Shown here: in pieces, positions 167 through 19,358 of the stretch
Position numbering within the stretch: position 1 is the stretch's first letter
How the letters are laid out: every line of letters begins with the position of its first letter
The notes under the pieces: model-generated
The model's input: the letters and a program-made list of their open reading frames with translations, nothing else
What the model was told of the DNA's origin: nothing
Database searches by the model: none
Made by a program: the position numbers and the translations under genes
Assembly (NCBI GenBank): GCA_900763685.1
Contig: CAAFLF010000011.1
Location: 1-19,358, forward strand
DNA length: 19,358 nt
Source: an uncultured Oscillospiraceae bacterium
GTDB lineage: Bacteria > Bacillota > Clostridia > Oscillospirales > Oscillospiraceae
Direction: 5' to 3'

Positions 167-225
167 GCCAAGTCCCGGGCTTCCCCGGCACCCCTGGCCG
201 GTCGGCCAGCCCCCGCGGCGGGGCC

Positions 226-318
226 GCAAGCCGCCGACCTTCGTCGGCGGCTCTCCGCCCCCCGCAGGGGGCGGTCCACCAGGCCTCTGATAGAAGGATC
301 AACCCCCAGATGTCATCC
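226..318. repeat. Direct repeat copy 2 (hairpin-bearing element)
   Basis: This is the second copy of the element at 73-166, offset by 153-154 bp. Hairpin 1 pairs 229-238 with 243-252 around a CTTC loop. Hairpin 2 pairs 255-262 with 267-274 (CCGCCCCC/GGGGGCGG, loop CGCA) and is perfect here. The 3' part has diverged slightly from copy 1. It ends only 8 bp before the -35 hexamer of the glyA promoter. Confidence 0.7.
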
Positions 319-5296: not shown

Positions 5297-5489
5297 GCGC
5301 GCTGCTCTGACGGCCCCGCCTCCGCGCGGACCGCCTCACGGCCGGGCAACGCCCGGGCCGCTTTCACGGCAGGTCTCCACACTGCCGCGCCGTTGAGCCT
5401 ACGGGGGTACCCATCCTTTCTTTCCCGCTCCGGCGCGATCAAGTGGAGTCACGGCGGAGGGGCGGAATGTCCCGGCAAAGCCGGGAAGC

Positions 5490-8113: not shown

Positions 8114-8483
8114 GCGGACCTACTATGAGTACAGCCTCCTCTGCGACTTTGACGGCGCGGACATCGGCCAGCTCTTCGCCCAGTACCTCCTCAACGGGGA
8201 GCAGCGGCACGTCTTCGCCAGCTACCTGGTCCGCTGGGGGGAGGACGGCAAGATCCTCTCCGTGAACCTGATCCGCTGCGAGGTGCCGGAGAGATCGCCC
8301 TGGGACAACCGCTTCTACGCGGACCCCTTCCTCCTCTCCGTGGGGGAGGACAGCTTCCAGATCGTCCTCCAGCTCTCCGCCCGGGAGGCGGACAAGGAGC
8401 GCGGCACCGAGCAAAACGAGTGCTACACCATCCACTATGATAACGGCCTCGCCACCGCGGAGTTTGACGGATACCCCTTCTGA
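8067..8483 (+). pseudogene. Detached C-terminal domain of the XRE membrane regulator
   Basis: This frame is open from 8067, after a stop at 8064-8066, to TGA 8481-8483. It reads as a plausible globular domain from about 8104 (GFERTYYEYSLLCDFDGADI...) to the end. It has no ATG or ribosome site of its own near the beginning; the first GTG is at 8262, mid-domain. It sits in the +1 frame relative to the XRE coding region just upstream. It most simply represents the extracytoplasmic part of that protein. I do not recognise the fold. A terminator-like hairpin follows at 8491-8521. Confidence 0.65.
8071..8105. repeat. Perfect 15-bp inverted repeat at the frameshift
   Basis: GGAGATGCTCCGGCG (8071-8085) is exactly complementary to 8091-8105 around a 5-nt centre (GGCGG). 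It lies inside coding sequence, where the reading frame is lost. Such a perfect palindrome can arise by template switching or quasipalindrome correction. It can also cause sequencing compression or ribosome pausing. Confidence 0.8.
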
Positions 8484-8490
8484 CCCGGAT

Positions 8491-8524
8491 GCCCCCGGGG
8501 AAGCGGTGCCTCCCCGGGGGCTTT
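8491..8524 (+). terminator. Terminator-like hairpin after the XRE membrane regulator
   Basis: An 11-bp stem (8491-8501 with 8511-8521) with a 9-nt loop begins 7 nt after the stop at 8483. It is followed by TTTCT. The T-run is short but the position fits transcription termination. Confidence 0.6.
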
Positions 8525-8605
8525 CTCCGCCCTCCGCCCCGACACCCCCGCCCCCGGAAAACCGGAAACCCCTTCCATCCCCACCCCCGGGGACGGATTT
8601 CCGTA

Positions 8606-8635
8606 TTGACAAGGGTCCCGGGTTTGAAATATAAT
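8606..8635 (+). promoter_or_regulatory. Promoter of the XRE-cupin regulator gene
   Basis: Perfect TTGACA (8606-8611) and TATAAT (8630-8635) hexamers are separated by 18 bp. The predicted start near 8642 leaves a ~130-nt leader containing the GTGAA/TTCAC inverted pair at 8651-8696. Confidence 0.8.
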
Positions 8636-8650
8636 CTCATAAATACCAGT

Positions 8651-8696
8651 GCGTGAAAACACGGCATCCATGAAATCAGGCCCCGCTTTTTCACGC
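8651..8696. promoter_or_regulatory. GCGTGAAAA / TTTTCACGC inverted half-sites in the regulator leader
   Basis: GCGTGAAAA (8651-8659) is exactly complementary to TTTTCACGC (8688-8696). The GTGAA/TTCAC cores match the ATTCAC motif array in front of the catabolic operon (9459-9558). This suggests that the XRE-cupin protein binds its own leader as well as the operon. It is an inference from shared motifs. Confidence 0.45.
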
Positions 8697-8775
8697 CAGA
8701 GAAAAACGTTTACCCGCCGCCGCTCCCATCCGCTGGAAGGGGCTGGCGCCGGGCCGCCGGGGAGGATTGAGCGCC

Positions 8776-9348
8776 ATGAGCGATTCCATTGGGGAGAAGC
8801 TGAAACAGGTCCGCAACGCCAAGGGCATGACGCTGAAGGAGCTGGGGGACACCGCAGGGCTCTCCGCGGGCTACCTCTCCCAGCTGGAGCGGGGCAAGAG
8901 CTCCATCGGCATGAGCCAGCTGGGCAAGCTGGCCAACTGCCTGGGCGTGGATGTCCGCTACTTCATCTCGGAGGAGTTCCAGAGCGAGAATCCCGTGATG
9001 AAGAGCTACGAGAACGTGGTGCTCTACATTGAGAACGAGCGGAGCTTCCAGTACCGCGTCACCAACGACCTCCACAGCAAGGACCTCCTTCCCCGGATCG
9101 ATGTCCTCCTCCCGGGCTTCTCCACCGAGGCGGCCCACACCCACGGCGGCGAGGAGTTCATCTACGTGCTGGAGGGGGTCATGACCTTCGGCATCGACGG
9201 CAAGACCTACGAGCTCTACCCCGGCGACACCGCCCATTACAGCGCCACCACCGTCCACAGCTGGAGCAATAACACCAGCAAGCCCGTCCGGGTCCTGCTG
9301 GTCACCACCCCCAATTCCTTCAAGAAGGACCCTCCGGAGGAGGAATGA
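8776..9348 (+). CDS. XRE-family transcriptional regulator with C-terminal cupin domain
   Basis: This 190-residue protein joins an N-terminal XRE helix-turn-helix (about 8-62, with GMTLKELGDTAGLSAGYLSQ) to a cupin_2 effector domain (about 108-178). The cupin part retains a full metal-binding set: H121 and H123 in HTHGGEEF, E127, and H161 in TTVHSWSN. Members of this family usually sense a small metabolite and control neighbouring catabolic or transport genes. I chose the ATG at 8776, 10 nt from GGAGG (8761-8765); the in-frame TTG at 8767 sits directly on that site. It is transcribed alone from a consensus promoter and ends in a strong terminator. The catabolic cluster starting at 9642 is its likely target. 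Confidence 0.93.
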   Translation: MSDSIGEKLKQVRNAKGMTLKELGDTAGLSAGYLSQLERGKSSIGMSQLGKLANCLGVDVRYFISEEFQSENPVMKSYENVVLYIENERSFQYRVTNDLHSKDLLPRIDVLLPGFSTEAAHTHGGEEFIYVLEGVMTFGIDGKTYELYPGDTAHYSATTVHSWSNNTSKPVRVLLVTTPNSFKKDPPEEE

Positions 9349-9372
9349 CGCCCCCGCCGTCCCCCTCTCAAC

Positions 9373-9408
9373 GGCCAGACCCGTTTTGCCGGGTCTGGCC
9401 CTTTTTTT
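9373..9408 (+). terminator. Intrinsic terminator after the XRE-cupin gene
   Basis: A perfect 11-bp stem (9373-9383 with 9390-9400, 6-nt loop) is followed by a run of seven T (9402-9408). It separates the regulator from the catabolic operon. Confidence 0.95.
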
Positions 9409-9458
9409 GCCCCTTTGGAGCCAAATGGACGGGAAAATTTACCGAATTCCGTTATAAA

Positions 9459-9558
9459 ATTCACGAACAAGCATTTTTCCTGTTGAAAATTCACAAAACG
9501 AGACCGTTCGATTATACGGATTCACGAATGTGAAAAAACCTCTTTACAAATTCACAAA
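9459..9558 (+). promoter_or_regulatory. Four phased ATTCAC(G/A)AA sites upstream of the catabolic operon
   Basis: ATTCAC begins at 9459, 9489, 9520 and 9550, so the spacings are 30, 31 and 30 bp, about three helical turns each. Each copy continues as GAA or AAA. The third copy is a full dyad, TTCACGAATGTGAA (9521-9534). The region is strikingly AT-rich compared with its surroundings. The last copy lies between the proposed -35 and -10 boxes, which would suit repression. The likely binder is the XRE-cupin protein encoded upstream. Confidence 0.7.
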
Positions 9559-9570
9559 AATGATTATCAT
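9543..9570 (+). promoter_or_regulatory. Candidate promoter of the catabolic operon
   Basis: TTTACA (9543-9548) and TATCAT (9565-9570) are 16 bp apart, giving a predicted start near 9577 and a ~65-nt leader. The spacing is slightly short and alternatives exist in this AT-rich stretch, so the assignment is tentative. Confidence 0.45.
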
Positions 9571-9641
9571 ATGAGGTGGAGTTAAAAAATACGGCACGAA
9601 ACCCAGAAGAAGAAAAATTATCCAGGAGGAATTTCACAGAT

Positions 9642-10022
9642 ATGAAGCAAGAGCTTCGGGACGAGGCGTCCCTTGGCCCGGTCTCCGGCCTCTATTCCCA
9701 GGCCATCCGCTCCGGCGACCTCCTCTTCACCACCCAGATCGGCAACGTGAGGGGCGGCCCCCTGGCGGGGGAGGATATGTACACCCAGGCCGTCCAGACC
9801 CTGAAAAATGCCTCCGCCATCCTGGCGGCGGCGGGCGGCAGCCTGGCGGACGTGGTGAAATGCACCATCTACATCGTGGACATGGCGGACTATGACGCCC
9901 TGAATCAGGCCTACCGGGAGTGGATGCCCCAGCCCTACCCCGCGAGAGCCTGCGTCCAGGTCTCCCGCCTGAGCCCCGGCTCCCGGGTGGAGATGGAATT
10001 CGTGGCGGATCTCAGCCGCTGA
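9642..10022 (+). CDS. ridA: RidA family protein (enamine/imine deaminase type)
   Basis: RidA/YjgF/UK114 proteins hydrolyse reactive enamine or imine intermediates, mostly 2-aminoacrylate-type products of PLP enzymes; some subgroups are catabolic deaminases. The 126-residue length is typical. Family features include GPVSGLYSQAIRSGDLLFTT near the N-terminus, the central DVVKCTIYIVDMADYDALNQAY, and a C-terminal PARACVQVSRLSPGSRVEMEFVA with the conserved arginine that binds the substrate carboxylate. I chose the ATG at 9642, downstream of AGGAGGA (9624-9630); an in-frame GTG at 9576 would begin at the predicted transcription start. It is the first gene of the catabolic cluster, 57 nt before the DHDPS-family gene. 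That position suggests that the pathway makes an enamine or imine. Confidence 0.93.
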   Translation: MKQELRDEASLGPVSGLYSQAIRSGDLLFTTQIGNVRGGPLAGEDMYTQAVQTLKNASAILAAAGGSLADVVKCTIYIVDMADYDALNQAYREWMPQPYPARACVQVSRLSPGSRVEMEFVADLSR

Positions 10023-10079
10023 GCGGCTTTTCCAGTAAAAAGCGAGAAGAGAAGACACAAGATAAAAGGAGGAACCCCT

Positions 10080-10973
10080 ATGAACAAGGCACCGAAAGGC
10101 ATGTATGTCCCCATTATCACCCCCTTCCGGGAGGATCAGAGCATCGACTTTGAGGCCTTCCAGAAGGTCATCGACTACACCATCGAGAACGGCGTGGACG
10201 GTATGCTGATCACCGGCAGCACCGGAGAGTACCACACCATGACCCTGGAGGAGCAGAAGGAAGTCATCAAGCGCGGCTGCGAGTTCGTGGCGGGCCGTGT
10301 CCCCGTGATCGCGGGCGTGGGCAAGTCCACCGCCAAGGCCACCATCGAGCTTGCCAACTTTGCCGCCGACTGCGGCGCCGAGTATGGCCTGGTGCTGCCC
10401 CCCTACTATCAGCCCACCACCCGTCAGGGCATCATCGATTTCTTTAAGGAGATCGCCGCCGGTTCCAAGCTTGGCATCATGATCTACGACAACCCCCTGG
10501 CCACCGGCGTGGAGCTGGAGCCCGATCTCATCTACGAGCTGGCCCAGGTGGACAACATCGTGGCCCTGAAGGACACCTCCGACATGATCCACACCTGCCA
10601 GGTCCTGGCCAAGACCCGGACCCTGGACAAGGAGTTCAGCGTGTTCCAGGGCTATGAGCACACCATCCTGCCCGCCATGGCCGTGGGCGCCCAGGGCGGC
10701 TTCGCCATCCTGATGAACGCCCTGCCCAAGGAGTACGCCAAGCTTTACAAGCTGGTCCAGGAGAACAAGTGGCAGGAGGCCACGGACTTCAACATGAGCA
10801 TGGCGGACCTCTTCACCGCCATGGAGGAGGAGCCCTATCCCGGCCCCGTGAAGGCCGCCATGAACATGATGGGCCTCCCCGCCGGCTACGTCCGCAAGCC
10901 CCTGGTAGACGCCTCCGAGGGCCTCAAGGAGAAAATGCGCGAAAACCTCCGCGCCCTGGGCTACAACGTCTGA
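10080..10973 (+). CDS. DHDPS/N-acetylneuraminate lyase-family aldolase or dehydratase
   Basis: The family uses a Schiff-base lysine to cleave, condense or dehydrate 2-keto acids, often with pyruvate. The 297-residue protein shows the GSTGE motif (46-50), tyrosine Y136 in IMIYDNP and the lysine K164 in IVALKDTS, so the catalytic core is intact. The position equivalent to the DHDPS arginine that binds aspartate semialdehyde (PSRTG) is alanine here (PLATG, A141). It is therefore unlikely to be the lysine-biosynthesis enzyme; a keto-sugar-acid, N-acylneuraminate-like or other aldol substrate is more likely. The ATG is preceded by AAAGGAGGAA. It lies between ridA and an amidohydrolase in one operon, which points to catabolism. 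The exact substrate cannot be read from the sequence. Confidence 0.92.
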   Translation: MNKAPKGMYVPIITPFREDQSIDFEAFQKVIDYTIENGVDGMLITGSTGEYHTMTLEEQKEVIKRGCEFVAGRVPVIAGVGKSTAKATIELANFAADCGAEYGLVLPPYYQPTTRQGIIDFFKEIAAGSKLGIMIYDNPLATGVELEPDLIYELAQVDNIVALKDTSDMIHTCQVLAKTRTLDKEFSVFQGYEHTILPAMAVGAQGGFAILMNALPKEYAKLYKLVQENKWQEATDFNMSMADLFTAMEEEPYPGPVKAAMNMMGLPAGYVRKPLVDASEGLKEKMRENLRALGYNV

Positions 10974-11001
10974 TCCCCCGCGGAAGAAGGAGAGACTTCC
11001 C

Positions 11002-12585
11002 ATGTACGCGGAGAAGATCTATGTGAACGGCAGGGTCTACACCATGGAGCGGGAGGCGGAGGCGGTGGAAGCCTTCGCCGTCCGGGATGGCAAGATCGCG
11101 GCCGTCGGCACGACGGAGGAGATCCGAAAGATCCCCCACGAGGAAACGGTGGACCTCCAGGGCCGGACCGTGCTGCCGGGCTTCATCGACGCCCACCTGC
11201 ACCTGCTGGCCTACGGAGCGGGCCTCCTCAGCGTGGAGCTGCGGGGCACCGATTCCATCGCGCGGGTGCTGGACCTTCTGCGGCAGCGGGCCGGGACCAC
11301 GCCCAAGGGCGAGTGGATCCGGGGCCTGAACTTCGACCAGGAGACCTTCGCCGAGGGGCGGATGCCCACCCGGGAGGACCTGGACGCCGTCTCCACCGAG
11401 CACCCCATCCTCATCAGCCGCTACTGCCAGCATGTCCACGTGGCCAACTCCCTGGCCCTGAAGCTGGCCGGCATCACCCGGGAGACCGCCGCCGCGGACG
11501 AGCTCTGCAAGGTGGACGCGAACGGCGAGCCCAACGGCATCCTCTGGGATACCGCGGTGGCGCCGGTGCTGAGGATCATTCCGGACCCCATCGCCACCTA
11601 CGAGGCCAAGAAGAAGGCCGCCAAGGCCGTCTGCTATGACATGGCCCGCTACGGCATCACCGGGGCCCACACGGTGCGGGGACGCCATGTGGACCTGGAT
11701 GACTACCTGAACATCTACCAGGACCTGGAGGACGAGGGCCAGCTTCCCGTCCGGATCTACGCCTCCTTCGATGAGTTTCCCAACCTGCCCATGCGCACGG
11801 GCCTGGGCAACGAGAAGGTCCGCTACGGCTACTATAAGATCTATGTGGACGGGTCCCTGGGCGGCCGGGGCGCCTACTTCACGGAGCCCTACAGCGACGC
11901 CCCGGATACCTACGGCGCCATGATCCACACCCCGGAGGAGATCGACGCCCTGGTGAAGCGGGCCAACGACATGGGCCTGCAGATCGGCGTCCACTGCATC
12001 GGTGACAAGGCCATCGACTGTGTGGTCAGCGCCATTGAGAAGGCCTACGCCGAGAATCCCCGGCCGGACGCCCGCTTCCGCCTCATCCATGTGCTGGGCA
12101 TCAACAGGGAGCTCATCGAGCGCTGCCGAAAGCTCCCCATCATGTTTGACGTCCAGCCCAAGTTCCTGGCCAGCGACGTCCACTGGGCGGAGGACCGGCT
12201 GGGTCCGGACCGCTCTCCCTACGGCTTCGCCTGGAAGAAGCTCATCGACGCGGGCTTCGTGGTCACCGGCAGCTCCGACTGCCCGGTGGAGCCCTACAAC
12301 CCCTTCCTGGGCATCTACGCCGCCGTGACCCGGCAGGACCTGGACGGCTGGCCTGAGGGCGGCTGGTACCCCGAGAACAAGCTCTCCGTCTATGAGGCCC
12401 TCTGCCTCTACACCAAGAACGGGGCCTACGCCTCCTTCGAGGAGAAGATCAAGGGCACCATCGCCCCCGGCAAGCTGGCGGACTTCATCCTGCTGGACGC
12501 CGATCCCTACGCGGTGCCCCCGGCGGAGCTGAAGAACATCCGTGTTTTGAAGACTTATTTGGGTGGCGAAGTCACCTTTGAATAA
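11002..12585 (+). CDS. YtcJ-like metal-dependent amidohydrolase
   Basis: This 527-residue protein belongs to the amidohydrolase superfamily (amidohydrolase_3/YtcJ group), whose members hydrolyse amide or related bonds at a metal centre in the cytoplasm. Visible metal-site elements are DAHLHL (H65, H67) after LPGFI, a lysine in YYKIYVDGS (K279), GVHCIGDKA (H331), a later IHVLG histidine, and the catalytic aspartate in SSDCPVEP (D426). The N-terminal beta-sandwich strand IYVNGRVYTM and C-terminal APGKLADFILLDADP complete the fold. The gene follows the DHDPS-family gene by 28 nt with AAGGAGAGA before the ATG. In this operon it might remove an acyl or carbamoyl group from the imported compound; this is inference. 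Known YtcJ homologues act on diverse substrates, so specificity is open. Confidence 0.92.
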   Translation: MYAEKIYVNGRVYTMEREAEAVEAFAVRDGKIAAVGTTEEIRKIPHEETVDLQGRTVLPGFIDAHLHLLAYGAGLLSVELRGTDSIARVLDLLRQRAGTTPKGEWIRGLNFDQETFAEGRMPTREDLDAVSTEHPILISRYCQHVHVANSLALKLAGITRETAAADELCKVDANGEPNGILWDTAVAPVLRIIPDPIATYEAKKKAAKAVCYDMARYGITGAHTVRGRHVDLDDYLNIYQDLEDEGQLPVRIYASFDEFPNLPMRTGLGNEKVRYGYYKIYVDGSLGGRGAYFTEPYSDAPDTYGAMIHTPEEIDALVKRANDMGLQIGVHCIGDKAIDCVVSAIEKAYAENPRPDARFRLIHVLGINRELIERCRKLPIMFDVQPKFLASDVHWAEDRLGPDRSPYGFAWKKLIDAGFVVTGSSDCPVEPYNPFLGIYAAVTRQDLDGWPEGGWYPENKLSVYEALCLYTKNGAYASFEEKIKGTIAPGKLADFILLDADPYAVPPAELKNIRVLKTYLGGEVTFE

Positions 12586-12643
12586 GGAAAGCGACAAGAG
12601 AGAAAAGAAGATCCCGAAAAAACATTTCAGGAGGAGAAAACGA

Positions 12644-13675
12644 ATGAAAAGAATGCTCGCGACTCTGATGGTCCTGTCCCTGTCCCTGGCCCTGCTGGCC
12701 GGCTGCGGCAGCCAGGGCAACAACGCCGCCTCCGGCAGCAACGCCGGCGCGAATGGCGAGACCTACACCATGCGCATCAGCCACGCCGTGGCGGAGACCC
12801 ATCCCTCCCACCAGACCCTCCTGGCCTTTGAGAAGGCCGTGGAGGAGGGCACCAACGGCGCCGTCCAGGTGGAGCTGATCCCCAATGGCGCTCTGGGCGG
12901 CGAGACCCAGCTGGCCGAGATGGTGCAGCTTGGCTCCCTGCAGGGCACCGTCATCGGCGCGGACGCCGCCTCCGGCATCATCCCTGAGTTCGCCCTCATC
13001 GGCGCTCCCTACCTCTTCAACTCCCGCACCTCCGTCTACGCCGCTCTGGACGGCGAGTTCGGCGACACCCTGGCGGAGAAGGCCGCCAACTTCAACATCT
13101 ACGTGGCCGGCTGGGGCGACGCGGGCTTCCGCAACGTCACCAACTCCAAGCACGAGATCGTGACTCCCGATGACATGAAGGGCCTCAAGATCCGCGTCAT
13201 GGAGAACGAGCTCCACATGGACCTCTTCAAGGCCTTCGGCGCCAGCCCCGCTCCCATCGCCTTCAACGAGCTCTTCACCGCCCTGCAGCAGAAGACCGTG
13301 GACGCCCAGGAGAATCCCATCACCGTCTTCACCGTCTCTGGCTTCTATGAGGTCCAGCACTACATGACCACCACCGAGCACGTCTACACCGCCGCTCCCT
13401 TCCTCATCGGCCAGAGGTGGCTGGACACCCTGCCCGCCGAGTATCAGACCGTCGTGAAGGACGCCGCCTCCCAGTGGGTCACCGACCAGCGTCAGGCCAT
13501 GGAGGACGGCGAGGCCACCCACATGCAGACCTGCATCGACAACGGCATGGAGATCCGCGTCCTGACTCCCGAGGAGAAGCAGGTCTGGATGGACGCCGCC
13601 ACCGTGCTGGATGACACCATCGTCGCCAAGTACGGCCAGGAGCTGCTGGATCTGGCCCGCAGCTTCAACCAGTAA
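12644..13675 (+). CDS. dctP: TRAP transporter substrate-binding lipoprotein (DctP family)
   Basis: This is the extracytoplasmic receptor of a tripartite ATP-independent periplasmic-type transporter, which captures an organic acid and passes it to the membrane subunits. The 343-residue precursor begins with a lipoprotein signal peptide and lipobox LLAGC (C21), followed by a Gly/Asn/Ala/Ser-rich linker. The DctP fold is evident from MRISHAVAETHPSH and GLKIRVMEN, with R184 as the conserved carboxylate-binding arginine, and NELFTALQQKTVDAQENP. The ATG at 12644 is 9 nt from GGAGG; longer upstream forms would overlap the amidohydrolase. The partners dctQ and dctM follow after a 90-nt gap that contains a strong hairpin. 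The substrate probably carries a carboxylate but is otherwise unknown. Confidence 0.95.
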   Translation: MKRMLATLMVLSLSLALLAGCGSQGNNAASGSNAGANGETYTMRISHAVAETHPSHQTLLAFEKAVEEGTNGAVQVELIPNGALGGETQLAEMVQLGSLQGTVIGADAASGIIPEFALIGAPYLFNSRTSVYAALDGEFGDTLAEKAANFNIYVAGWGDAGFRNVTNSKHEIVTPDDMKGLKIRVMENELHMDLFKAFGASPAPIAFNELFTALQQKTVDAQENPITVFTVSGFYEVQHYMTTTEHVYTAAPFLIGQRWLDTLPAEYQTVVKDAASQWVTDQRQAMEDGEATHMQTCIDNGMEIRVLTPEEKQVWMDAATVLDDTIVAKYGQELLDLARSFNQ

Positions 13676-13714
13676 GCGTTCCATTTCCCGCGAGTAAGAG
13701 AGAAGGATACCCAT

Positions 13715-13748
13715 CGCGGCGGGAGAGGTCAAGGCCTCTCCCGCCGCG
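13715..13748 (+). other. Intercistronic hairpin between dctP and dctQ
   Basis: A perfect 14-bp stem (13715-13728 with 13735-13748, loop TCAAGG) lies between the receptor gene and the membrane-subunit genes. It is not followed by a T-run. Hairpins of this kind can protect the upstream message and give the binding protein higher expression than the membrane subunits. Confidence 0.75.
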
Positions 13749-13765
13749 TACAAAGAGGAGAGATC

Positions 13766-14257
13766 ATGAAAGTATTGAAATTCTTGGACGCCAAGCTGGA
13801 AGAGTACCTCATGACGGTGCTGACCATCGTCATGACCGCGCTCATCTTCCTGCAGGTCGTCATGCGCTATATCTTTAAGGATTCCCCGGCCTGGACGGAG
13901 GAGCTCTCCCGCTACCTCTTCCTGTGGGCCATCTGGATCGGCGCCAGCTACGGCGTCAAGACCCAGAGCCACGTCCGCCTCACCGTTCTCACCAGCCGCC
14001 TCAGCAAGAAGGTCCAGGATGTCATCAACGTGGTGGTCTGGTTCCTGTGGCTGGCCTTCACCATCTTCCTGGTGACCAAGGGCTTTGAGCTCGTCAGCAT
14101 CTTCCTGGCCTCCGGCCAGACCTCCACCGCCATGCACATCCCCATGTGGTTCGCTTACGCCTCCGTGCCGGTGGGCTGCACCCTGATGGCGTTCCGTCTG
14201 CTGCAAAACGCCTACTTCGCCATCCGGAACTATAAGAAAGAAAAGGAGGCCGATTGA
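13766..14257 (+). CDS. dctQ: TRAP transporter small membrane subunit (DctQ family)
   Basis: The 163-residue protein has four predicted membrane helices (about 15-35, 48-66, 88-108 and 126-150). It also has the family's conserved early stretch RYIFKDSPAWTEELSRYLFLWAIW, with FLQVVMRY just before. It pairs with the large subunit to form the membrane part of the transporter. AAAGAGGAGAGA precedes the ATG. The stop at 14257 is 2 nt before the dctM ATG, so translation of the two is coupled. A basic, lysine-rich C-terminus (YKKEKEAD) faces the cytoplasm by the positive-inside rule. Confidence 0.94.
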   Translation: MKVLKFLDAKLEEYLMTVLTIVMTALIFLQVVMRYIFKDSPAWTEELSRYLFLWAIWIGASYGVKTQSHVRLTVLTSRLSKKVQDVINVVVWFLWLAFTIFLVTKGFELVSIFLASGQTSTAMHIPMWFAYASVPVGCTLMAFRLLQNAYFAIRNYKKEKEAD

Positions 14258-14259
14258 TC

Positions 14260-15552
14260 ATGTCTGGCGTCGCTCTGCTCTTTATCCTTTTGATCGGCCT
14301 GATGATGGCCAGCGTGCCCGTGGGTATCTCCCTGGGCCTCTCTACCCTGGTGACCATGGTGCTCACCACCAACCTGGATGTCATCACCATCCCCCAGTAC
14401 TGCTTCCGGGGCCTGGATTCCTTCCCCCTCATGGCCATCCCCTTCTTTATGCTGGCGGGCAACCTCATGAAGTTCGGCGGTCTCTCGGAGAAGCTCATCA
14501 ACCTCTCCAACAGTCTGGTCCGGGGCTTCAAGGGCGGCCTTGGCCACGTGACGGTTCTGGCCTCCATGTTCTTCGCGGCCCTGTCCGGCTCAGCCCCCGC
14601 CACCGTCATGGCCATCGGCTCCAACGTCATTCCCCAGATGGAGAAGCACGGCTATGACCGGGGCTATGCCACGGCGCTGGCTTCCACCGCTGGTACCATC
14701 GGCGTCATCATCCCGCCCAGCATTCCCTTCGTCATCTACGGCGTGGTCAGCGGTGCGTCTATCAGCGATCTTTTCGTGGCCGGGATCATCCCTGGCATCC
14801 TCATCGGCATTGTGCTGATGGTGGTCAACTACATCTACGCCCGCAAGTATGGCTACGGCGGTGAGGGCCGCGCCAGCTTCCGGGAGTTCCTCCACGAGCT
14901 GAAGGACGCCATCTGGGCCCTGCTGGTGCCCGTCATCATCCTGGGCGGCATCTACGGCGGCATCTTCACCCCCACCGAGTCCGCAGTGGTGGCCGTGGTC
15001 TACACCCTCATCATCGGTTTTGTGGTCTACAAGGAGCTCACCTGGAAGAAGGTCTGGGACGCCTTCATGGAGACCGGCGCCCTCAACGGCACCACCACCT
15101 TCATGGTTGGCCTCTCCATGTCCTTTGCCGCTTACCTGACGTTGGCCGGCATCCCCTCCGCCGTGGGCCAGGCTATCCTCTCTCTGGACGCCGGCCCTGT
15201 GGTGATCCTGCTGCTCATCAACGTGGTGCTGCTGGTCGTGGGCTGCTTCGTGGATAACATCTCCTCCACCATCATCCTGACCCCCATTCTGCTGCCCATC
15301 GCCCAGGGCGTCGGCATGACCGCCGTGCAGTTCGGCATCGTCATGACCGTCAACCTGGCCATCGGCTTCATCACGCCTCCCTACGGTGTCAACCTCTTCT
15401 ACGGCAGCGCCATCGGCAAGGTCAGCATCGAGGAGCTCAGCAAGAAGATCCTGCCCTTCATCGGCGCCATGATCATCTGCCTGCTGCTCCTGACCTTCAT
15501 TGAGCCCCTGAGTATGTGGCTGCCCACCCTGATGGCCGCGAAGGCCGGCTGA
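14260..15552 (+). CDS. dctM: TRAP transporter large membrane subunit (DctM family)
   Basis: This is the ion-coupled transport channel of the TRAP system. The 430-residue protein is polytopic with roughly twelve hydrophobic segments. It shows DctM hallmarks: SFPLMAIPFFMLAGNLM, ALSGSAPATVMAIGS, TAGTIGVIIPPSIPFVIYG, GGIFTPTESAVVAV and FITPPYGVNLF. I chose the ATG at 14260, 10 nt after GGAGG (14245-14249) inside the end of dctQ; the TTG at 14254 is only 4 nt away from that site. The operon order P-Q-M is complete, so the transporter should be functional. Confidence 0.95.
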   Translation: MSGVALLFILLIGLMMASVPVGISLGLSTLVTMVLTTNLDVITIPQYCFRGLDSFPLMAIPFFMLAGNLMKFGGLSEKLINLSNSLVRGFKGGLGHVTVLASMFFAALSGSAPATVMAIGSNVIPQMEKHGYDRGYATALASTAGTIGVIIPPSIPFVIYGVVSGASISDLFVAGIIPGILIGIVLMVVNYIYARKYGYGGEGRASFREFLHELKDAIWALLVPVIILGGIYGGIFTPTESAVVAVVYTLIIGFVVYKELTWKKVWDAFMETGALNGTTTFMVGLSMSFAAYLTLAGIPSAVGQAILSLDAGPVVILLLINVVLLVVGCFVDNISSTIILTPILLPIAQGVGMTAVQFGIVMTVNLAIGFITPPYGVNLFYGSAIGKVSIEELSKKILPFIGAMIICLLLLTFIEPLSMWLPTLMAAKAG

Positions 15553-15600
15553 GCCACCCCCAGTTCCTTCAAAATCGCGTAATATCGGAGTTTGAATCAC

Positions 15601-16581
15601 ATGCCAAAATACAAAGTTCTCTACACAGATACCTGCTTCCCGGATACCAGCATCGAGTCGGCGGAGCTGGCGGCCATTGACGCGGAGCTGATCCTGGCCC
15701 CCGCCACGGATGAGGACAGCCTCATCGCCGCCGGCAAGGACTGCGACGGCGTGATCTTTGATTTCGCCCCCATGACGGACCGGGTCCTCAGCAACCTGCC
15801 CAAGTGCAAGGTGGCCTCCCGGGTGGGCATCGGCCTCAACAACATCGACATCCCCGCCGCCAGCCGCAACGGCATCATGGTGGCCAACGTCCCGGACTAC
15901 TGCTTCGAGGAGGTGGCGAACCACGCCGTGGCCCTGTACCTGGCCTGCAACCGCCGCCTGACCCAGTATGACCACCGGATCAAGGACCAGGGCAACTGGG
16001 ATGTCACCGGCGTCGGTCCCATCTACCGCATGACGGGCCAGAACTTCTGCCTCTACGGCCTCGGCAACATCGCCCGCCGGGTGGTGAAGCGGGTGAAGCC
16101 CTACGGCTTCCACGTCTATGCCTACGACGCCTACGCCAGTGACGAGGTCTTCCAGCAGATGGGTGTCACCCGGGTGAACTCCTTGGAGGAGCTTGCCGAG
16201 CTTGCGGACGCCTTCTCCGTCCACGTGCCCCTGACCCCGGAGACGGAGGGCACCATTGACCGGAACATCTTCCGCCGGATGAAGAAGAACGCCATCTTCG
16301 TGAACATCGCCCGGGGCCCCATCGTGAAGGAGGAGGACCTCATCGCGGCGCTGAACGAGGGCATGATCATGGCCGCCGGCCTGGATGTCGTCAGCGTGGA
16401 GCCCCTGCCGGCGGATTCCCCCCTCCTGAAGATGGACAACGTCCTTATCACGCCCCATGCCGCCTTCTACACCCGGGAGGCGGAGGACGAGCTGCGCAAG
16501 CGCAGCACGGAGGAGGTCATCTACGCCCTGACCGAGGGCAAGCCCCACGTCTTCGTCAACCAGTCCGACTTCGCCGTCTGA
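15601..16581 (+). CDS. D-isomer-specific 2-hydroxyacid dehydrogenase (CtBP-like)
   Basis: The family reversibly reduces 2-keto acids to D-2-hydroxyacids using NAD(P)H in the cytoplasm. The 326-residue protein has the Rossmann motif GLGNIARRV and the catalytic triad: R238 (NIARGP), E267 (SVEPLP) and H286 (ITPHAAF). The N-terminal part with YTDTCFPD and SRVGIGLNNID resembles the C-terminal-binding-protein-like subgroup. The ATG at 15601 lies 10 nt after GGAG; the in-frame TTG at 15592 is too close. It sits 48 nt after dctM and only 4 nt before the next dehydrogenase. In this pathway it could act on a keto acid released by the DHDPS-family enzyme; that is inference. Confidence 0.93.
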   Translation: MPKYKVLYTDTCFPDTSIESAELAAIDAELILAPATDEDSLIAAGKDCDGVIFDFAPMTDRVLSNLPKCKVASRVGIGLNNIDIPAASRNGIMVANVPDYCFEEVANHAVALYLACNRRLTQYDHRIKDQGNWDVTGVGPIYRMTGQNFCLYGLGNIARRVVKRVKPYGFHVYAYDAYASDEVFQQMGVTRVNSLEELAELADAFSVHVPLTPETEGTIDRNIFRRMKKNAIFVNIARGPIVKEEDLIAALNEGMIMAAGLDVVSVEPLPADSPLLKMDNVLITPHAAFYTREAEDELRKRSTEEVIYALTEGKPHVFVNQSDFAV

Positions 16582-16585
16582 GCCA

Positions 16586-17524
16586 ATGGAAAACGCCATC
16601 CGGAACATCACCGTCCTGGGCGCCGGCACCATGGGGTCCGCCATCGCGGAGTTCTTCGCGGCGGCTGGCCACCCCGTGGCGCTGTACAGCCGGACGGAGG
16701 AGACCCTGGCCCGGGCGAGAGCCGCCATGGCCGCCGACCTCGCCATGCTGGCGGAGACCGACGGCCCCCGGGAGGCGGCGGACACGGTCCTCTCTCATGT
16801 CCGCTGCTTCACGGACCTGGCCCAGGCCTCGGCGGAAGCCGACTGGGTCATTGAGACCGTGGCGGAGAACCCCCAGGTCAAAAAGGCCGTGCTGGAGGCG
16901 GCGGACCGCGCCGCCCCGCCCCACGCCTACCTCACCAGCGATACCTCCGCCCTGAACATCTTCTCCTTCCTGGAGACGGGGCGGCCTGAGCGGGTGCTCA
17001 TCACCCACTTCTTCAACCCCGCGAGCCTCATGCCCCTGGTGGAGATGGTCCCGGGACCCCAGACCTCGGCGGACGCGGTCCGGAAGCTGCGCGCCTTTCT
17101 GGAGAGCCTCGGCAAGCAGCCCATCCTCCTGCGGGAGTGTATCCCCGGCTTCCTCGCCAACCGCTTGACCCTGGCCCTGGCCCGGGAGGCCTTCTACCTG
17201 GCGGGGGAGGGCTACGCCTCTATTGAGGATATCGACCGGGTCATCACCTCCACCTTCGGACCCCGCTATGTCTTTGAGGGGATTTTCGACCTCTATGACC
17301 ACATCGGCATGGACGTGGGCTACGCCGTGGCCAAGGACCTGCTGCCGGAGCTCTGCTCGGATACCCAGGTCCCCCGCCTCCTGCGGGAGAAGCGGGAGGC
17401 CGGCGAGCTGGGCGTCAAGACCGGCAAGGGCCTGAAGGACTATACCGGCCAGGACATCCCGGCCCTCCGCCGGGAGCGCAACCGGAAGATCGCGAAGTCC
17501 CTCCGCCAGATACGGTCCCTCTGA
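16586..17524 (+). CDS. 3-hydroxyacyl-CoA dehydrogenase-family protein
   Basis: These enzymes oxidise L-3-hydroxyacyl-CoA or, in related subgroups, free 3-hydroxy acids such as carnitine or L-gulonate, with NAD. The 312 residues begin with the NAD motif VLGAGTMG (G12, G14, G17). The catalytic pair H141 (ITHFFNP) and E153 (PLVEM) is spaced by 12 residues as in known family members. The C-terminal helical domain starts at PGFLANRL. The gene starts 4 nt after the previous stop and has no visible Shine-Dalgarno, so it is probably translated by coupling. The ALNIFSFLETGRPERVLITHFFNP stretch fits the general family but does not settle whether the substrate is a CoA ester. A terminator-like hairpin follows. 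Confidence 0.92.
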   Translation: MENAIRNITVLGAGTMGSAIAEFFAAAGHPVALYSRTEETLARARAAMAADLAMLAETDGPREAADTVLSHVRCFTDLAQASAEADWVIETVAENPQVKKAVLEAADRAAPPHAYLTSDTSALNIFSFLETGRPERVLITHFFNPASLMPLVEMVPGPQTSADAVRKLRAFLESLGKQPILLRECIPGFLANRLTLALAREAFYLAGEGYASIEDIDRVITSTFGPRYVFEGIFDLYDHIGMDVGYAVAKDLLPELCSDTQVPRLLREKREAGELGVKTGKGLKDYTGQDIPALRRERNRKIAKSLRQIRSL

Positions 17525-17545
17525 TCTCTCTCATCTCAGTGCCCG

Positions 17546-17576
17546 AAAGCCGTCCCGTGGCCCGGGGCGGCTTTTT
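17546..17576 (+). terminator. Terminator-like hairpin inside the catabolic cluster
   Basis: An 8-bp GC stem with one wobble (17549-17556 with 17564-17571, 7-nt loop) extends by three A-T pairs and is followed by TTTTT (17572-17576). It lies between the HAD-family gene and the AEC transporter gene, 25 nt after a stop codon. No room for a new promoter exists before the next start, so it is probably leaky and tapers expression. Confidence 0.65.
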
Positions 17577-17596
17577 CGGAAAAGGAGCGTCACGGC

Positions 17597-18538
17597 ATGA
17601 TACAGCAGATCCTCTCCCAGGCGGCCAGCATCTTCCTCCTCATTGGACTGGGCCTCCTGGCCGCCAGGACGAAGATATTCCCGGAGGACGGCACGGACGT
17701 TCTCTGCCGGCTGCAGCTGAACGTGGTGACGCCCGTCATGATCCTCGTCACCATGCAGGGCCACACCTTCGCGGGCCAGTTAGCCATGGATACCCTCTGG
17801 TCCTTCCTCTCCTACGGCCTCACGGTGGCGGCGGTGGGGCTGCTGAGCTTCCCGCTGGTCAGGCTCCTCCGCCTGGGGGAGGAGGACCAGGGTGTCTGCC
17901 GGATCCAGCTGGCCTTCAAAAATATCGGCTTCATGGGCATCCCCCTGGTGAGCGCTGTGCTGGGCCAGCGCCCCGGCGTCGTCATCGTGCTGATGAACAC
18001 CCTCTTCGGCGTCCTGCTCTACTCCCTGGGCATGGTCCTGCTGCTCTACCGCCGGGGCTGCCGGGTCTTCAGTCGGGATTTCCTCCGGCGGGTGGTGAAC
18101 CTGCCGCTGGTGTCGTCCCTCCTGGGCATCCTGGTGCTGGTCACCGGCTTCACCCTGCCGGAGACCGTGAACCGGGGCCTCACCCTGGTCTCGGACATGA
18201 TGGTCCCTCTGGGGATGTTCATCGTGGGCCTGCAGCTGAGCCGCACAGACCTCCGCCGGATCGTGAGCCCGCGGAACCTGGCCTTCTGCGTCATCTCCCT
18301 CATCCTGGTGCCGCTGCTGGCGCTGGGCATCGGCTCTCTCCTGCCGGAGAGCGCCGCCGTCACCGCCACGCTGGTCTTCGCCATGGCCATGCCCTCCGGC
18401 ACCCTCTGCGCCATCCTGACGGAGGAGACCGGGCGGAATACCGACCTGGCCTCGGGGACGCTGGCGCTGAGCACCCTGTTCTCCCTGGGCACCCTCCCGG
18501 TCTGGGCGCTGTTTCTCCTCTCCCATTTTTCCCTCTGA
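17597..18538 (+). CDS. AEC-family (auxin efflux carrier-type) transporter
   Basis: The AEC family contains secondary transporters for organic acids such as malate or malonate in bacteria. The 313-residue protein has about ten hydrophobic segments in two similar halves. Family-like stretches are NVVTPVMILVTM near residues 40-52, AFKNIGFMGIPLV around 105-117, and FAMAMPSGTLCAILTEE near 275-291. The ATG follows AAAAGGAGCG. It lies 72 nt after the dehydrogenase gene, behind a leaky terminator. Beside a complete TRAP importer, this second carrier could export an end product such as a hydroxy acid, or import a related acid. The direction cannot be seen. Confidence 0.92.
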   Translation: MIQQILSQAASIFLLIGLGLLAARTKIFPEDGTDVLCRLQLNVVTPVMILVTMQGHTFAGQLAMDTLWSFLSYGLTVAAVGLLSFPLVRLLRLGEEDQGVCRIQLAFKNIGFMGIPLVSAVLGQRPGVVIVLMNTLFGVLLYSLGMVLLLYRRGCRVFSRDFLRRVVNLPLVSSLLGILVLVTGFTLPETVNRGLTLVSDMMVPLGMFIVGLQLSRTDLRRIVSPRNLAFCVISLILVPLLALGIGSLLPESAAVTATLVFAMAMPSGTLCAILTEETGRNTDLASGTLALSTLFSLGTLPVWALFLLSHFSL

Positions 18539-18568
18539 ATTTCCACCAATCCGAAAGGAGCGAACCCT

Positions 18569-19141
18569 ATGAAACGTGATCTTGGGCCGAAAGACCTCAT
18601 CTTCCCGGCGCCGGTCCTCATCGTCGGCACCTACGGCCAGGACGGTACCCCCAACGCCATGAACGTGGCCTGGGGCGGCATCTGCAGCTCCGTCCCGCCC
18701 GCCGTGGCCATCTCCATCCGCGAGACCCGCAGGACCTTTGCCAACATCCAGGCCAAGGGCGCCTTCACCGTGGCCATCGCCACCGAGGAGCTCATGGTCC
18801 AGGCGGACTACGTGGGCCTGGTCTCCGGCAGCAAGGGCAACAAGCTGGAAAAGGCCGGCCTCCGCACCGTGAAATCGGAGCATGTGGACGCCCCCGTCCT
18901 CCAGGACTTCCCCGTGACTCTGGAGTGCCGGGTCATGAGCGTCACGAAGATCGGCCAGCACATGCACATCGTGGGCGAGATCGTCAACGTCCTGGCGGAG
19001 GAGTCCGTCCTCAATGAGAAGGGCCAGGTCGACGCCGCCCGGCTGAAGGCCATCGCCTATGACCCCGCCGACAACCAGTACCTGGCGGCCAGCCGGCCCG
19101 TGGGCAAGGCCTTCTCCGCCGGCATCCCCCTCACCAAGTGA
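18569..19141 (+). CDS. Flavin reductase-like FMN-binding split-barrel protein
   Basis: The 190-residue protein matches the flavin reductase-like domain, with FPAPVLIVGTYGQDGTPNAMNVAWGGI at the N-terminal barrel and RETRRTFANIQAKGAFTVAI after it. The region near VGLVSGSKGNKLEKAGL is typical of the gut-bacterial and archaeal branch. These proteins bind FMN and either pass electrons to an oxygenase-like partner or act as reductases or redox proteins on their own. No partner flavoenzyme is seen in the window. The ATG is preceded by GAAAGGAGCG. It is 30 nt after the AEC gene, so it belongs to the same unit. Its electron acceptor is unknown. Confidence 0.9.
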   Translation: MKRDLGPKDLIFPAPVLIVGTYGQDGTPNAMNVAWGGICSSVPPAVAISIRETRRTFANIQAKGAFTVAIATEELMVQADYVGLVSGSKGNKLEKAGLRTVKSEHVDAPVLQDFPVTLECRVMSVTKIGQHMHIVGEIVNVLAEESVLNEKGQVDAARLKAIAYDPADNQYLAASRPVGKAFSAGIPLTK

Positions 19142-19147
19142 CCCACC

Positions 19148-19179
19148 CCTCCCGGGGCCCCTTCCTTCGCCCCGGGGGA
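19148..19179. repeat. GC-rich hairpin after the flavin reductase-like gene
   Basis: CCCGGGGC (19151-19158) pairs with GCCCCGGG (19169-19176) and extends by a wobble and two more pairs around a 10-nt loop. No T-run follows, so it looks like an intercistronic hairpin rather than a terminator. Confidence 0.5.
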
Positions 19180-19240
19180 TGGAAAATAGAAAGAAACCCC
19201 CGAAAAAACCGGAAAACAAGCTTTGAAAGGAGCAACAACC

Positions 19241-19358
19241 ATGACCATTCAGGAACAGATCGTCGCCGCGCGGGTCGCGCAGGCCGCCATCAAGGATTAC
19301 ACCCAGGAGCAGGTAGACAAGCTGGTCTACGAGGTCGCGAAGATCATCTACAAGAACG
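19241..19358 (+). CDS. N-terminus of a probable CoA-acylating aldehyde dehydrogenase (cut by window end)
   Basis: Thirty-nine residues are visible, from ATG 19241 (preceded by GAAAGGAGCAAC) to the window end. The start, MTIQEQIVAARVAQAAIKDY followed by TQEQVDKLVYEVAKIIYKN, has the helical pattern found at the N-terminus of acylating aldehyde dehydrogenases. These include succinate-semialdehyde dehydrogenase (acylating) and the AdhE-like group, often with a TQEQVD-type segment. No catalytic residue is in view. If correct, it would convert an aldehyde released by the DHDPS-family aldolase to an acyl-CoA. The call depends on a short piece, so the family is moderate while the presence of a gene is very likely. 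Confidence 0.6.
   Translation, partial: MTIQEQIVAARVAQAAIKDYTQEQVDKLVYEVAKIIYKN

What the first reader, a model, noticed from the sequence alone, without database searches (positions are those of the whole stretch)
9642..19358. Unassigned catabolic gene set: RidA, DHDPS-family lyase, YtcJ amidohydrolase, TRAP transporter, two dehydrogenases, AEC carrier, flavin protein, acylating aldehyde dehydrogenase
The cluster is co-directional with short gaps, and contains a complete importer, hydrolase, C-C lyase or dehydratase, redox enzymes and a second carrier under a dedicated XRE-cupin regulator. I do not recognise this combination as a described pathway. A consistent but speculative order is: import of a carboxylated N-acyl or amide compound by TRAP, hydrolysis by the amidohydrolase, imine clean-up by RidA, aldol cleavage to pyruvate or a keto acid plus an aldehyde, then oxidation of the aldehyde to acyl-CoA and reduction of the keto acid to a D-hydroxyacid exported by AEC.
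Basis: partly seen in the sequence, partly recalled or inferred. Interest (0 to 1): 0.72.

Follow-up and report, generated by a model that had tools for sequence, protein, structure and literature searches.

The report
Unassigned bacterial acid-degrading operon
A bacterium related to Oscillibacter carries an intact set of genes, apparently switched by its own regulator, that probably imports and breaks down a small organic acid whose identity is still unknown; the gene kinds are ordinary, and this combination matched none of the known pathways tested here.

Summary
The gene list is real. From 9642 to the window end, one strand encodes RidA, a DHDPS-family lyase, a YtcJ-type (Amidohydro_3) hydrolase, a TRAP importer (DctP, DctQ, DctM), a 2-hydroxyacid dehydrogenase, a 3HCDH-family dehydrogenase, an AEC carrier and a flavin-reductase-like protein, then 39 residues of a probable CoA-acylating aldehyde dehydrogenase. 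The closest named relative of the hydrolase is from Oscillibacter. Catalytic or binding residues checked in six proteins are intact.

New here: the leader holds four ATTCACRAA boxes spaced 30/31/30 bp (0.10 expected in the window), and a TTCACG-core inverted repeat follows the XRE-cupin gene's promoter, supporting dedicated regulation. DctP keeps five residues of a TRAP group whose solved members mostly hold hydroxy-acids. The lyase lacks DapA's substrate arginine and has Thr where a 4-hydroxy-2-oxo-acid aldolase has its hydroxyl-contacting Ser.

Sialate, hydroxyproline, lysine-synthesis and metallo-bile-salt-hydrolase readings fail at least one defining test each; a taurine-conjugate module is a live minor rival. 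Best reading: an inducible operon for a small hydroxy-carboxylate with a C-N bond, broken by aldol cleavage. Substrate unidentified. Moderate interest.

The parts
8606..8635 (+). sigma-70-type promoter of the regulator gene (TTGACA-18-TATAAT)
   Evidence: 12 of 12 consensus positions
8651..8696 (.). inverted repeat with TTCACGC arms just after the regulator promoter; possible autoregulatory operator
   Evidence: arms 8651-8664 and 8683-8696, 86% complementary; TTCACG core positions
8776..9348 (+). XRE-cupin regulator (HTH_3 + Cupin_2, PuuR-like architecture)
   Evidence: Pfam; NCBIfam PuuR 77 bits, below its cut-off of 211
9373..9408 (+). terminator-like hairpin between regulator and operon
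   Evidence: 11-pair stem at 9373-9400, 9 GC, T tract
9459..9558 (+). array of four direct ATTCACRAA boxes at 9459, 9489, 9520, 9550; probable operator of the operon
   Evidence: 4 found in the window, 0.10 expected; 0 of 20000 Markov samples of the intergenic stretch reach 3
9543..9570 (+). candidate operon promoter TTTACA-16-TATCAT; box 4 lies in its spacer
   Evidence: 10 of 12 consensus positions
9642..10022 (+). RidA-family enamine/imine deaminase
   Evidence: PF01042 E=4e-30; Arg102
10080..10973 (+). DHDPS/NAL-family class I lyase
   Evidence: PF00701 E=5e-72; Lys164, Tyr136, Tyr110, GSTGE kept, Ala141 in place of DapA Arg138, Thr166
11002..12585 (+). YtcJ-type Amidohydro_3 metal-dependent hydrolase; N-terminus does not look like a signal peptide
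12644..13675 (+). TRAP solute-binding protein DctP with a lipoprotein-like N-terminus
   Evidence: PF03480 E=6e-84; Glu87, Arg163, Arg184, Phe207, Asn224
13766..14257 (+). TRAP small permease DctQ
   Evidence: PF04290 E=9e-38
14260..15552 (+). TRAP large permease DctM
   Evidence: PF06808 E=1e-118
15601..16581 (+). D-isomer-type 2-hydroxyacid dehydrogenase
   Evidence: PF02826/PF00389; GLG, Arg, Glu, His motifs
16586..17524 (+). short 3HCDH-family dehydrogenase
   Evidence: PF02737 E=5e-51, PF00725; Ser121, His141, Glu153, Asn192 in 24 of 24 aligned
17597..18538 (+). AEC-family organic anion carrier
   Evidence: PF03547 E=4e-39
18569..19141 (+). flavin-reductase-like (FMN-binding split barrel) protein
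   Evidence: PF01613 E=7e-27
19241..19358 (+). first 39 residues of a probable CoA-acylating aldehyde dehydrogenase, cut by the window end
   Evidence: match to acetylating succinate-semialdehyde dehydrogenase 8cei, E=3.9e-4

Best explanation
A substrate-inducible catabolic operon of an Oscillibacter-like bacterium. Inferred steps: (1) an XRE-cupin regulator, autoregulated through a TTCACG inverted repeat, represses the operon by binding four TTCAC boxes on one helical face over the promoter until an inducer occupies its cupin domain; (2) the TRAP system imports a small carboxylate with a hydroxyl near the carboxyl group (2-hydroxy acid, sugar-acid or keto-deoxy-acid type); (3) the YtcJ-type hydrolase breaks a C-N bond (amide, lactam or formamide) in it or in a later intermediate, and RidA hydrolyses a reactive enamine or imine to the 2-oxo acid; (4) the two dehydrogenases set the oxidation level, the 2-hydroxyacid dehydrogenase most simply by oxidising the imported 2-hydroxy acid; (5) the DHDPS-family enzyme cleaves a 4-hydroxy-2-oxo acid through a Lys164 Schiff base to pyruvate and an aldehyde; (6) the acylating aldehyde dehydrogenase turns the aldehyde into an acyl-CoA for energy. 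Shown by sequence: gene content, intact active-site motifs, promoter boxes, DctP binding residues, non-DapA character of the lyase. Inferred: all reactions, their order, and that this regulator binds the boxes.
For: Gene content. Boxes and promoters. DctP: all seven PDB entries named in section 5 of PMC11668362 (read) are among the 60 hits listed for this DctP, with 7bbr and 4p47 first; that section says three of its ten homologues hold keto-deoxygluconate or uronates, two are open, one holds orotate and the rest hold pantoate or erythronate. Its conserved Arg152, Arg173, Asn213, aromatic 196 and acidic 76 (4P47 numbering) correspond to Arg163, Arg184, Asn224, Phe207, Glu87 here. Lyase: Ala or Ser at the DapA Arg138 position and Thr or Ser at Lys+2 in 23 of 23 aligned, window protein included; human HOG aldolase has the 4-hydroxyl-contacting Ser198 there and DapA has Ala163 (PMC3188589, passages); a DapA inside a dapA-dapB operon keeps the Arg. 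Contig sharing of lyase, hydrolase and 3HCDH relatives.
Against: The lyase scores above the NCBIfam DapA cut-off (238 against 206 bits). No substrate, product or growth phenotype is known. RidA and YtcJ imply nitrogen chemistry, but no aminotransferase, amino-acid dehydrogenase or ammonia-lyase was found among the genes scanned. Only 39 residues of the aldehyde dehydrogenase are visible. The DctP arginines and Asn are widespread in TRAP proteins and also present in isethionate-binding IseP, so they do not by themselves exclude a sulfonate; the crystal ligands were mostly co-purified. The TTCACG core alone is common: 18 sites in the window, 4 of them in the two promoters. None of the other 11 window proteins compared matches ten distant loci that hold a 32-41% relative of the hydrolase, so the grouping is not seen there.
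Confidence: 0.45

Rival explanations
1. The YtcJ-type hydrolase with RidA and the 2-hydroxyacid dehydrogenase belongs to D-amino-acid or modified-peptide use: it frees an amino acid from an N-acyl or cyclic derivative, RidA hydrolyses the imino acid and the dehydrogenase handles the 2-oxo acid; the DHDPS homologue is a deaminase or dehydratase rather than an aldolase.
For: 34-35% identical YtcJ relatives on a Shinella and a Sinorhizobium plasmid sit near D-amino-acid transaminase and P1-family peptidase genes and directly before a five-gene ABC importer; Shinella adds an M55 metallopeptidase, Sinorhizobium adds RidA and a 2-hydroxyacid dehydrogenase 4-6 kb away.
Against: Identity is low, those loci use ABC not TRAP import, and no aminotransferase, racemase or peptidase was found among the genes scanned in this window. 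Only two loci were read of 634 records matched. An oligopeptide importer plus a COG1574 protein also occurs in predicted taurine regulons, so those loci have another possible reading.
Confidence: 0.17
2. Taurine-conjugate or sulfonate module: the hydrolase frees taurine or a related amine sulfonate from an N-acyl form, a sulfonate is imported by an IseP-like TRAP protein, and the acylating aldehyde dehydrogenase acts on sulfoacetaldehyde.
For: Gut Amidohydro_3 enzymes of Bilophila hydrolyse taurine conjugates, and five of ten short ones (482-572 aa) show weak activity (PMC13081902, sections 7-9 and 11 read). Predicted TauR2 taurine regulons of three alphaproteobacteria include COG1574 (the YtcJ group), TRAP transporters of unknown specificity and an aldehyde dehydrogenase (PMC5320631, passages). 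The PDB relatives of isethionate-binding IseP overlap those of this DctP; IseP itself is a lower hit (121.7 bits). This odds figure was raised from 0.07.
Against: By offset from the shared metal ligands, the sulfonate-contacting Ser194, Gln381 and Asn443 are Cys142, Gly287 and Ile333 here. It has no extra C-terminal domain. No taurine-pyruvate aminotransferase, glycyl-radical lyase or sulfite-forming enzyme was found among the genes scanned, and this reading leaves the lyase and 2-hydroxyacid dehydrogenase unexplained.
Confidence: 0.12
3. The set is two or more separate transcription units that happen to be co-directional, with the dehydrogenases, carrier and flavin protein serving general metabolism.
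For: Gap of 72 bases before AEC and 99 bases before the aldehyde dehydrogenase; no transcript data; nothing tested ties AEC or the flavin protein to the rest.
Against: No + strand terminator-like site after 9400 and no + strand promoter-like site after 9570 up to 19358 in a consensus scan. 3HCDH relatives share contig lengths with hydrolase relatives (7257, 12824, 17848; a fourth, 4805, is probably chance) and with lyase relatives (11589, 12824).
Confidence: 0.13
4. A known pathway: sialate or trans-4-hydroxyproline degradation, or lysine biosynthesis.
For: The DHDPS family includes sialate lyase, the hydroxyproline-pathway deaminase (PMC4113996, passages) and DapA; the DapA HMM cut-off is passed.
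Against: No NanE, NanK, NagA, NagB, proline racemase or D-amino-acid oxidase family protein among the genes scanned; sialate-lyase HMM cut-offs not reached; DapA arginine missing in 23 of 23 aligned.
Confidence: 0.03

Closest known systems
TRAP-fed sugar-acid uptake such as CxaP of Advenella (PMC11668362 and PMC5812351, passages)
   Same: DctP of the same sequence group (7bbr is the best solved hit) with the five conserved ligand residues
   Different: Here beside RidA and an Amidohydro_3 hydrolase; no kinase or sugar-acid dehydratase among the genes scanned
N-acetylneuraminate lyase / KDG / 4-hydroxy-2-oxoglutarate aldolases (DHDPS superfamily)
   Same: GXXGE motif, Schiff-base Lys, Tyr, hydroxyl residue at Lys+2
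   Different: Below the sialate-lyase HMM cut-offs; own Glu193-His194 pair in 23 of 23 aligned; substrate unknown
Metallo-bile-salt hydrolases and short YtcJ amidohydrolases of Bilophila
   Same: Amidohydro_3, same six metal ligands and catalytic His
   Different: Three sulfonate-contacting residues replaced by offset, no C-terminal domain, no evident signal peptide
Predicted TauR2 taurine regulons with COG1574, TRAP and aldehyde dehydrogenase
   Same: YtcJ-group protein, TRAP transporter and an aldehyde dehydrogenase together
   Different: MocR-type regulator and oligopeptide ABC importer there; RidA, lyase, two dehydrogenases and XRE-cupin regulator here (those regulons were seen in passages only)
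PuuR-type XRE-cupin regulators
   Same: HTH_3 plus Cupin_2, beside a catabolic operon
   Different: PuuR HMM 77 bits against a cut-off of 211

Membership tests
DapA (4-hydroxy-tetrahydrodipicolinate synthase) | NCBIfam TIGR00674 score above cut-off | tested here: met
   238 against 206.15 bits
DapA (4-hydroxy-tetrahydrodipicolinate synthase) | Arg138 that binds aspartate semialdehyde | tested here: not met
   Ala141; Ala 19 and Ser 4 of 23 aligned, window protein included; Arg present in the Monoglobus dapA-dapB-operon protein
N-acetylneuraminate lyase and sialate pathway | nanA equivalog HMM cut-offs | tested here: not met
   124.5 against 382 and 155.7 against 281 bits
N-acetylneuraminate lyase and sialate pathway | Companion NanE, NanK, NagA, NagB | tested here: not met
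   absent among the genes scanned in the window; genes beyond 19358 not visible
4-hydroxy-2-oxo-acid aldolase type (HOGA/NAL/KDG group) | GXXGE, Schiff-base Lys, Tyr, hydroxyl residue at Lys+2 | tested here: met
   Gly46-Ser-Thr-Gly-Glu50, Lys164, Tyr136, Thr166
4-hydroxy-2-oxo-acid aldolase type (HOGA/NAL/KDG group) | Cleaves a 4-hydroxy-2-oxo acid | not testable with these tools
   needs an enzyme assay
Hydroxyproline degradation | Hydroxyproline epimerase (proline racemase family) and D-amino-acid-oxidase-type enzyme | tested here: not met
   neither found among the genes scanned; genes beyond 19358 not visible
Metallo-bile-salt hydrolase | Six metal ligands plus catalytic His | tested here: met
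   His65, His67, Lys279, His331, His363, Asp426, His144 in 25 of 25 aligned
Metallo-bile-salt hydrolase | Sulfonate-contacting Ser194, Gln381, Asn443, His544 | tested here: not met
   three of four placed by offset from shared ligands: Cys142, Gly287, Ile333; His544 could not be placed; no alignment to the Bilophila sequence was made
Metallo-bile-salt hydrolase | Additional C-terminal domain (about 4-fold activity effect in the paper) and signal peptide | tested here: not met
   527 aa, Amidohydro_3 spans 48-526; N-terminus MYAEKIYVNG judged by eye, no signal-peptide program was run
TRAP DctP, hydroxy-carboxylate group | Arg152, Arg173, Asn213, aromatic 196, acidic 76 (4P47 numbering) | tested here: met
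   Arg163, Arg184, Asn224, Phe207, Glu87; the first four are also kept in isethionate-binding IseP
TRAP DctP, hydroxy-carboxylate group | Binds a hydroxy-carboxylate | not testable with these tools
   needs a ligand screen; structure model unusable (pLDDT 33)
CoA-acylating aldehyde dehydrogenase | Catalytic Cys and NAD/CoA sites | not testable with these tools
   only 39 residues in the window; weak match

The most novel reading that the evidence does not exclude
A previously undescribed anaerobic pathway of Oscillospiraceae-type bacteria that takes a nitrogen-linked hydroxy acid (for example a hydroxy-acid amide or lactam of the pantoate/pantothenate size class) through hydrolysis, imine clearance, oxidation and aldol cleavage to pyruvate and an acyl-CoA, controlled by a four-box XRE-cupin operator.
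Probability: 0.25. Interest if true: 0.62.

Novelty: new variant of a known kind. Interest (0 to 1): 0.4.

Why it matters
The combination does not map to the known pathways tested here, and the window offers two concrete handles, a DctP with a probable ligand class and a mapped box array, that make its substrate findable by a ligand screen or an inducer screen. If the substrate is a dietary or host amide, taurine conjugate or vitamin-like acid, it would add an anaerobic degradation route. The kind of system, a TRAP-fed inducible acid-catabolic operon, is itself ordinary.

Tried and rejected
No whole genome is held for the window, so own-genome searches were impossible. Scans of viral contigs with the hydrolase alignment and the lyase alignment confirmed 0 of 38 and 0 of 13 candidate stretches. 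Relatives of the Draconibacterium genome gave 48 of 61 genomes with a hydrolase match at E <= 0.001, the best-scoring at 37% identity; in the ten loci L001-L010 none of the other 11 window proteins compared matched at E <= 1e-5 (flanks are about 1.5 kb for L007-L010, and L002, L004 and L006 are short contigs). DctP folded alone gave an unusable model, so no fold search was made with it. Fold searches with the hydrolase model gave uncharacterised Pyrococcus hydrolases first, then many amidohydrolases; no substrate follows. Plasmid neighbourhoods read: 2 of 634 records for the hydrolase, 3 of 1164 for the 3HCDH (one, Azospirillum, has a dapA-annotated gene about 7 kb away, which keeps the DapA arginine), 2 of 1788 for the lyase. 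None of the seven shows the set seen here. The Staphylococcus plasmid cluster with a 40% relative of the lyase beside an aldehyde dehydrogenase was checked as a possible hydroxyproline pathway: no epimerase in the region read, so it names no reaction.

Nine paper searches (0 papers; 36: 20; 44: 82, 12 listed; 59: 0; 78: 17, 10 listed; 79: 5; 80: 0; 87: 2; 88: 48, 12 listed) showed no paper on the full combination in their listings. This is a limited search of open-licence papers; most of the other listed papers were not opened.

Considered and dropped: carboxymethyllysine degradation (recalled lead, listing only), metalloBSH proper, sialate, hydroxyproline, lysine synthesis.

Full report
What is there. 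Twelve reading frames from 8776 to 19358 lie on the + strand: a regulator, ten complete genes and the start of an eleventh. Pfam assigns each complete one above its cut-off: XRE-cupin regulator, RidA, DHDPS family, Amidohydro_3 (YtcJ type), DctP, DctQ, DctM, 2-hydroxyacid dehydrogenase, short 3HCDH, AEC carrier, flavin-reductase-like protein. The last, truncated frame (19241-19358) matches the N-terminus of an acetylating succinate-semialdehyde dehydrogenase only weakly (E = 3.9e-4). Gaps from RidA to the flavin protein run from -4 to 90 bases with the DctM start used (+2 in place of -4 with the ATG); the last gap is 99. Most genes have a Shine-Dalgarno-like sequence.

Where it comes from. The hydrolase is 85% identical to a protein named from Oscillibacter valericigenes and 48% and 45% to two from O. 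hominis; most other close relatives are unnamed metagenome proteins. GC is 58-73%. I take it as an Oscillospiraceae-type bacterium, probably of a gut; the habitat is inferred, and no genome is held for it.

Is it one regulated unit? A terminator-like hairpin (9373-9400) follows the regulator. In a consensus scan of 8400-19358 no + strand terminator-like site follows 9400 and no + strand promoter-like site follows 9570. The leader holds four exact ATTCACRAA boxes at 9459, 9489, 9520 and 9550; the whole window was expected to hold 0.10 and none of 200 shuffles reached four. In 20000 Markov samples of the intergenic stretch none reached three; in 150 samples the longest evenly spaced chain of one-mismatch 9-mers was two, against four observed. 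Spacing of 30/31/30 is near three helical turns. Box 4 lies between the -35 and -10 of the candidate promoter, as for a repressor. The regulator's own consensus promoter is followed by an inverted repeat with TTCACGC arms. Of four TTTTCAC sites in the window three are in these two promoters (this motif was chosen after looking). Against over-reading: the bare TTCACG core occurs 18 times in the window, 4 of them in the two promoters, so the link between the two promoters is weaker than the box array itself. That the XRE-cupin protein binds either site is inferred.

What is imported. DctP's best solved relatives are 7bbr, 4p47, 4p9k, 4pdh, 4pdd, 4pfr and 4nq8. A 2024 study of isethionate-binding IseP (PMC11668362, sections 5 and 8 read) surveyed ten homologues. 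The seven entries that section 5 names are all among the 60 hits listed here: 7BBR with keto-deoxygluconate, 4N8Y and 4X8R with uronates, 4P47 and 4PFR open, 4NN3 with orotate, and 4XEQ; the rest held pantoate or erythronate, mostly co-purified. Which of 4p9k, 4pdh, 4pdd and 4nq8 belong to that rest, and with which ligand, I only recall. The five residues it marks as conserved are present here: Arg163, Arg184, Asn224, Phe207 and Glu87, the last being the acidic residue that typically contacts a ligand hydroxyl. The arginines, Asn and aromatic are also kept in IseP, so a sulfonate is not excluded by them. A small hydroxy-carboxylate is the likeliest class.

What the lyase is. It passes the NCBIfam DapA cut-off (238 against 206 bits) but not the sialate-lyase ones. 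DapA's Arg138, which binds aspartate semialdehyde, is Ala141 here and Ala or Ser in 23 of 23 aligned sequences (the window protein and 22 chosen of 120 listed relatives), while the DapA in a Monoglobus dapA-dapB operon has Arg. Lys164, Tyr136, Tyr110 and the GXXGE loop are kept. At Lys+2 it has Thr166 (Thr 18, Ser 5 of 23); human 4-hydroxy-2-oxoglutarate aldolase has Ser198 there, contacting the 4-hydroxyl, and DapA has Ala163 (PMC3188589, passages). I recall that sialate lyase has a Thr there too. This points to aldol cleavage of a 4-hydroxy-2-oxo acid, though dehydration or deamination is not excluded. A Glu-His pair (193-194), present in 23 of 23, is a candidate specificity feature.

The other enzymes look active: RidA Arg102, the Arg/Glu/His set of the 2-hydroxyacid dehydrogenase and the Ser/His/Glu/Asn set of the 3HCDH; those motif roles are recalled.

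Do the genes travel together? No neighbouring genomes could be fetched. As a proxy I compared the 'longest contig' lengths in the 120 rows listed of 6519 hydrolase, 6113 lyase and 1712 3HCDH matches (the hydrolase and 3HCDH searches scored only the best 8000 and 7998 candidates), leaving out contigs under 3000 bases. Hydrolase and lyase rows share four lengths (3533, 7342, 12824, 15805); hydrolase and 3HCDH share four (4805, 7257, 12824, 17848), of which 4805 comes from different sources and is probably chance; lyase and 3HCDH share two (11589, 12824). Jittered lengths give 0.25-0.32 coincidences on average; two or more occur in 2.3%, 2.0% and 4.3% of trials and three or more in 0.2%, 0.05% and 0.4%. 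So all three genes probably sit together on the 12824-base contig, at 78%, 65% and 54% identity, and pairs on others. This is indirect. Against wide conservation, ten loci with hydrolase relatives of 32-41% identity show no match to the 11 other window proteins, and none of seven plasmid neighbourhoods read shows the set.

Partial precedent. A 2016 regulon study (PMC5320631, passages) predicts TauR2 taurine regulons with COG1574 (the YtcJ group), TRAP transporters of unknown specificity, an oligopeptide importer and an aldehyde dehydrogenase. With the Bilophila work this makes a taurine-conjugate module the most interesting rival, although no other taurine gene was found among the genes scanned here and the lyase and 2-hydroxyacid dehydrogenase would be unexplained. 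The two plasmid loci with 34-35% YtcJ relatives instead show D-amino-acid transaminase and peptidase genes next to a five-gene ABC importer, one with RidA and a 2-hydroxyacid dehydrogenase nearby.

Verdict. It is an apparently inducible, intact operon of ordinary gene families in a combination that fails at least one defining test each for sialate, hydroxyproline, lysine-biosynthesis and metalloBSH systems. The substrate class is narrowed, not fixed, to a small hydroxy-carboxylate, and the reaction order remains a hypothesis.

Noticed in passing
window 9459-9558 and 8651-8696: Four evenly spaced ATTCACRAA boxes before the operon and a TTCACG inverted repeat behind the regulator promoter; a likely XRE-cupin operator array.
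   Followed up: yes
window 5291-5466 (- strand): malK-I RNA (RF03069, 102 bits) directly upstream of, and overlapping by 6 bases, a MalK-type ABC ATPase gene at 4127-5296.
   Followed up: no
window 72-307: Two overlapping direct repeats of 46 and 49 nt, each present twice about 154 bases apart at 91-94% identity, upstream of a serine hydroxymethyltransferase gene.
   Followed up: no
window 1855-4043: ECF-type sigma factor (Sigma70_r2, Sigma70_r4_2) overlapping by 4 bases a 551-aa protein with no Pfam family at E <= 0.001 and, by eye, membrane-like stretches.
   Followed up: no
eleven pairs of rows, e.g. P0013/P0049, P0054/P0064, P0081/P0114: Eleven pairs of the 120 listed hydrolase relatives share a contig length (counted), including Alkalibaculum and Oscillibacter hominis, suggesting tandem or duplicated paralogues with different substrates.
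   Followed up: partly
L017 5992-6876: A Staphylococcus equorum plasmid carries a 40% relative of the lyase between an aldehyde dehydrogenase and an amine-oxidase-type flavoprotein; it is annotated dapA but lacks the DapA arginine.
   Followed up: partly
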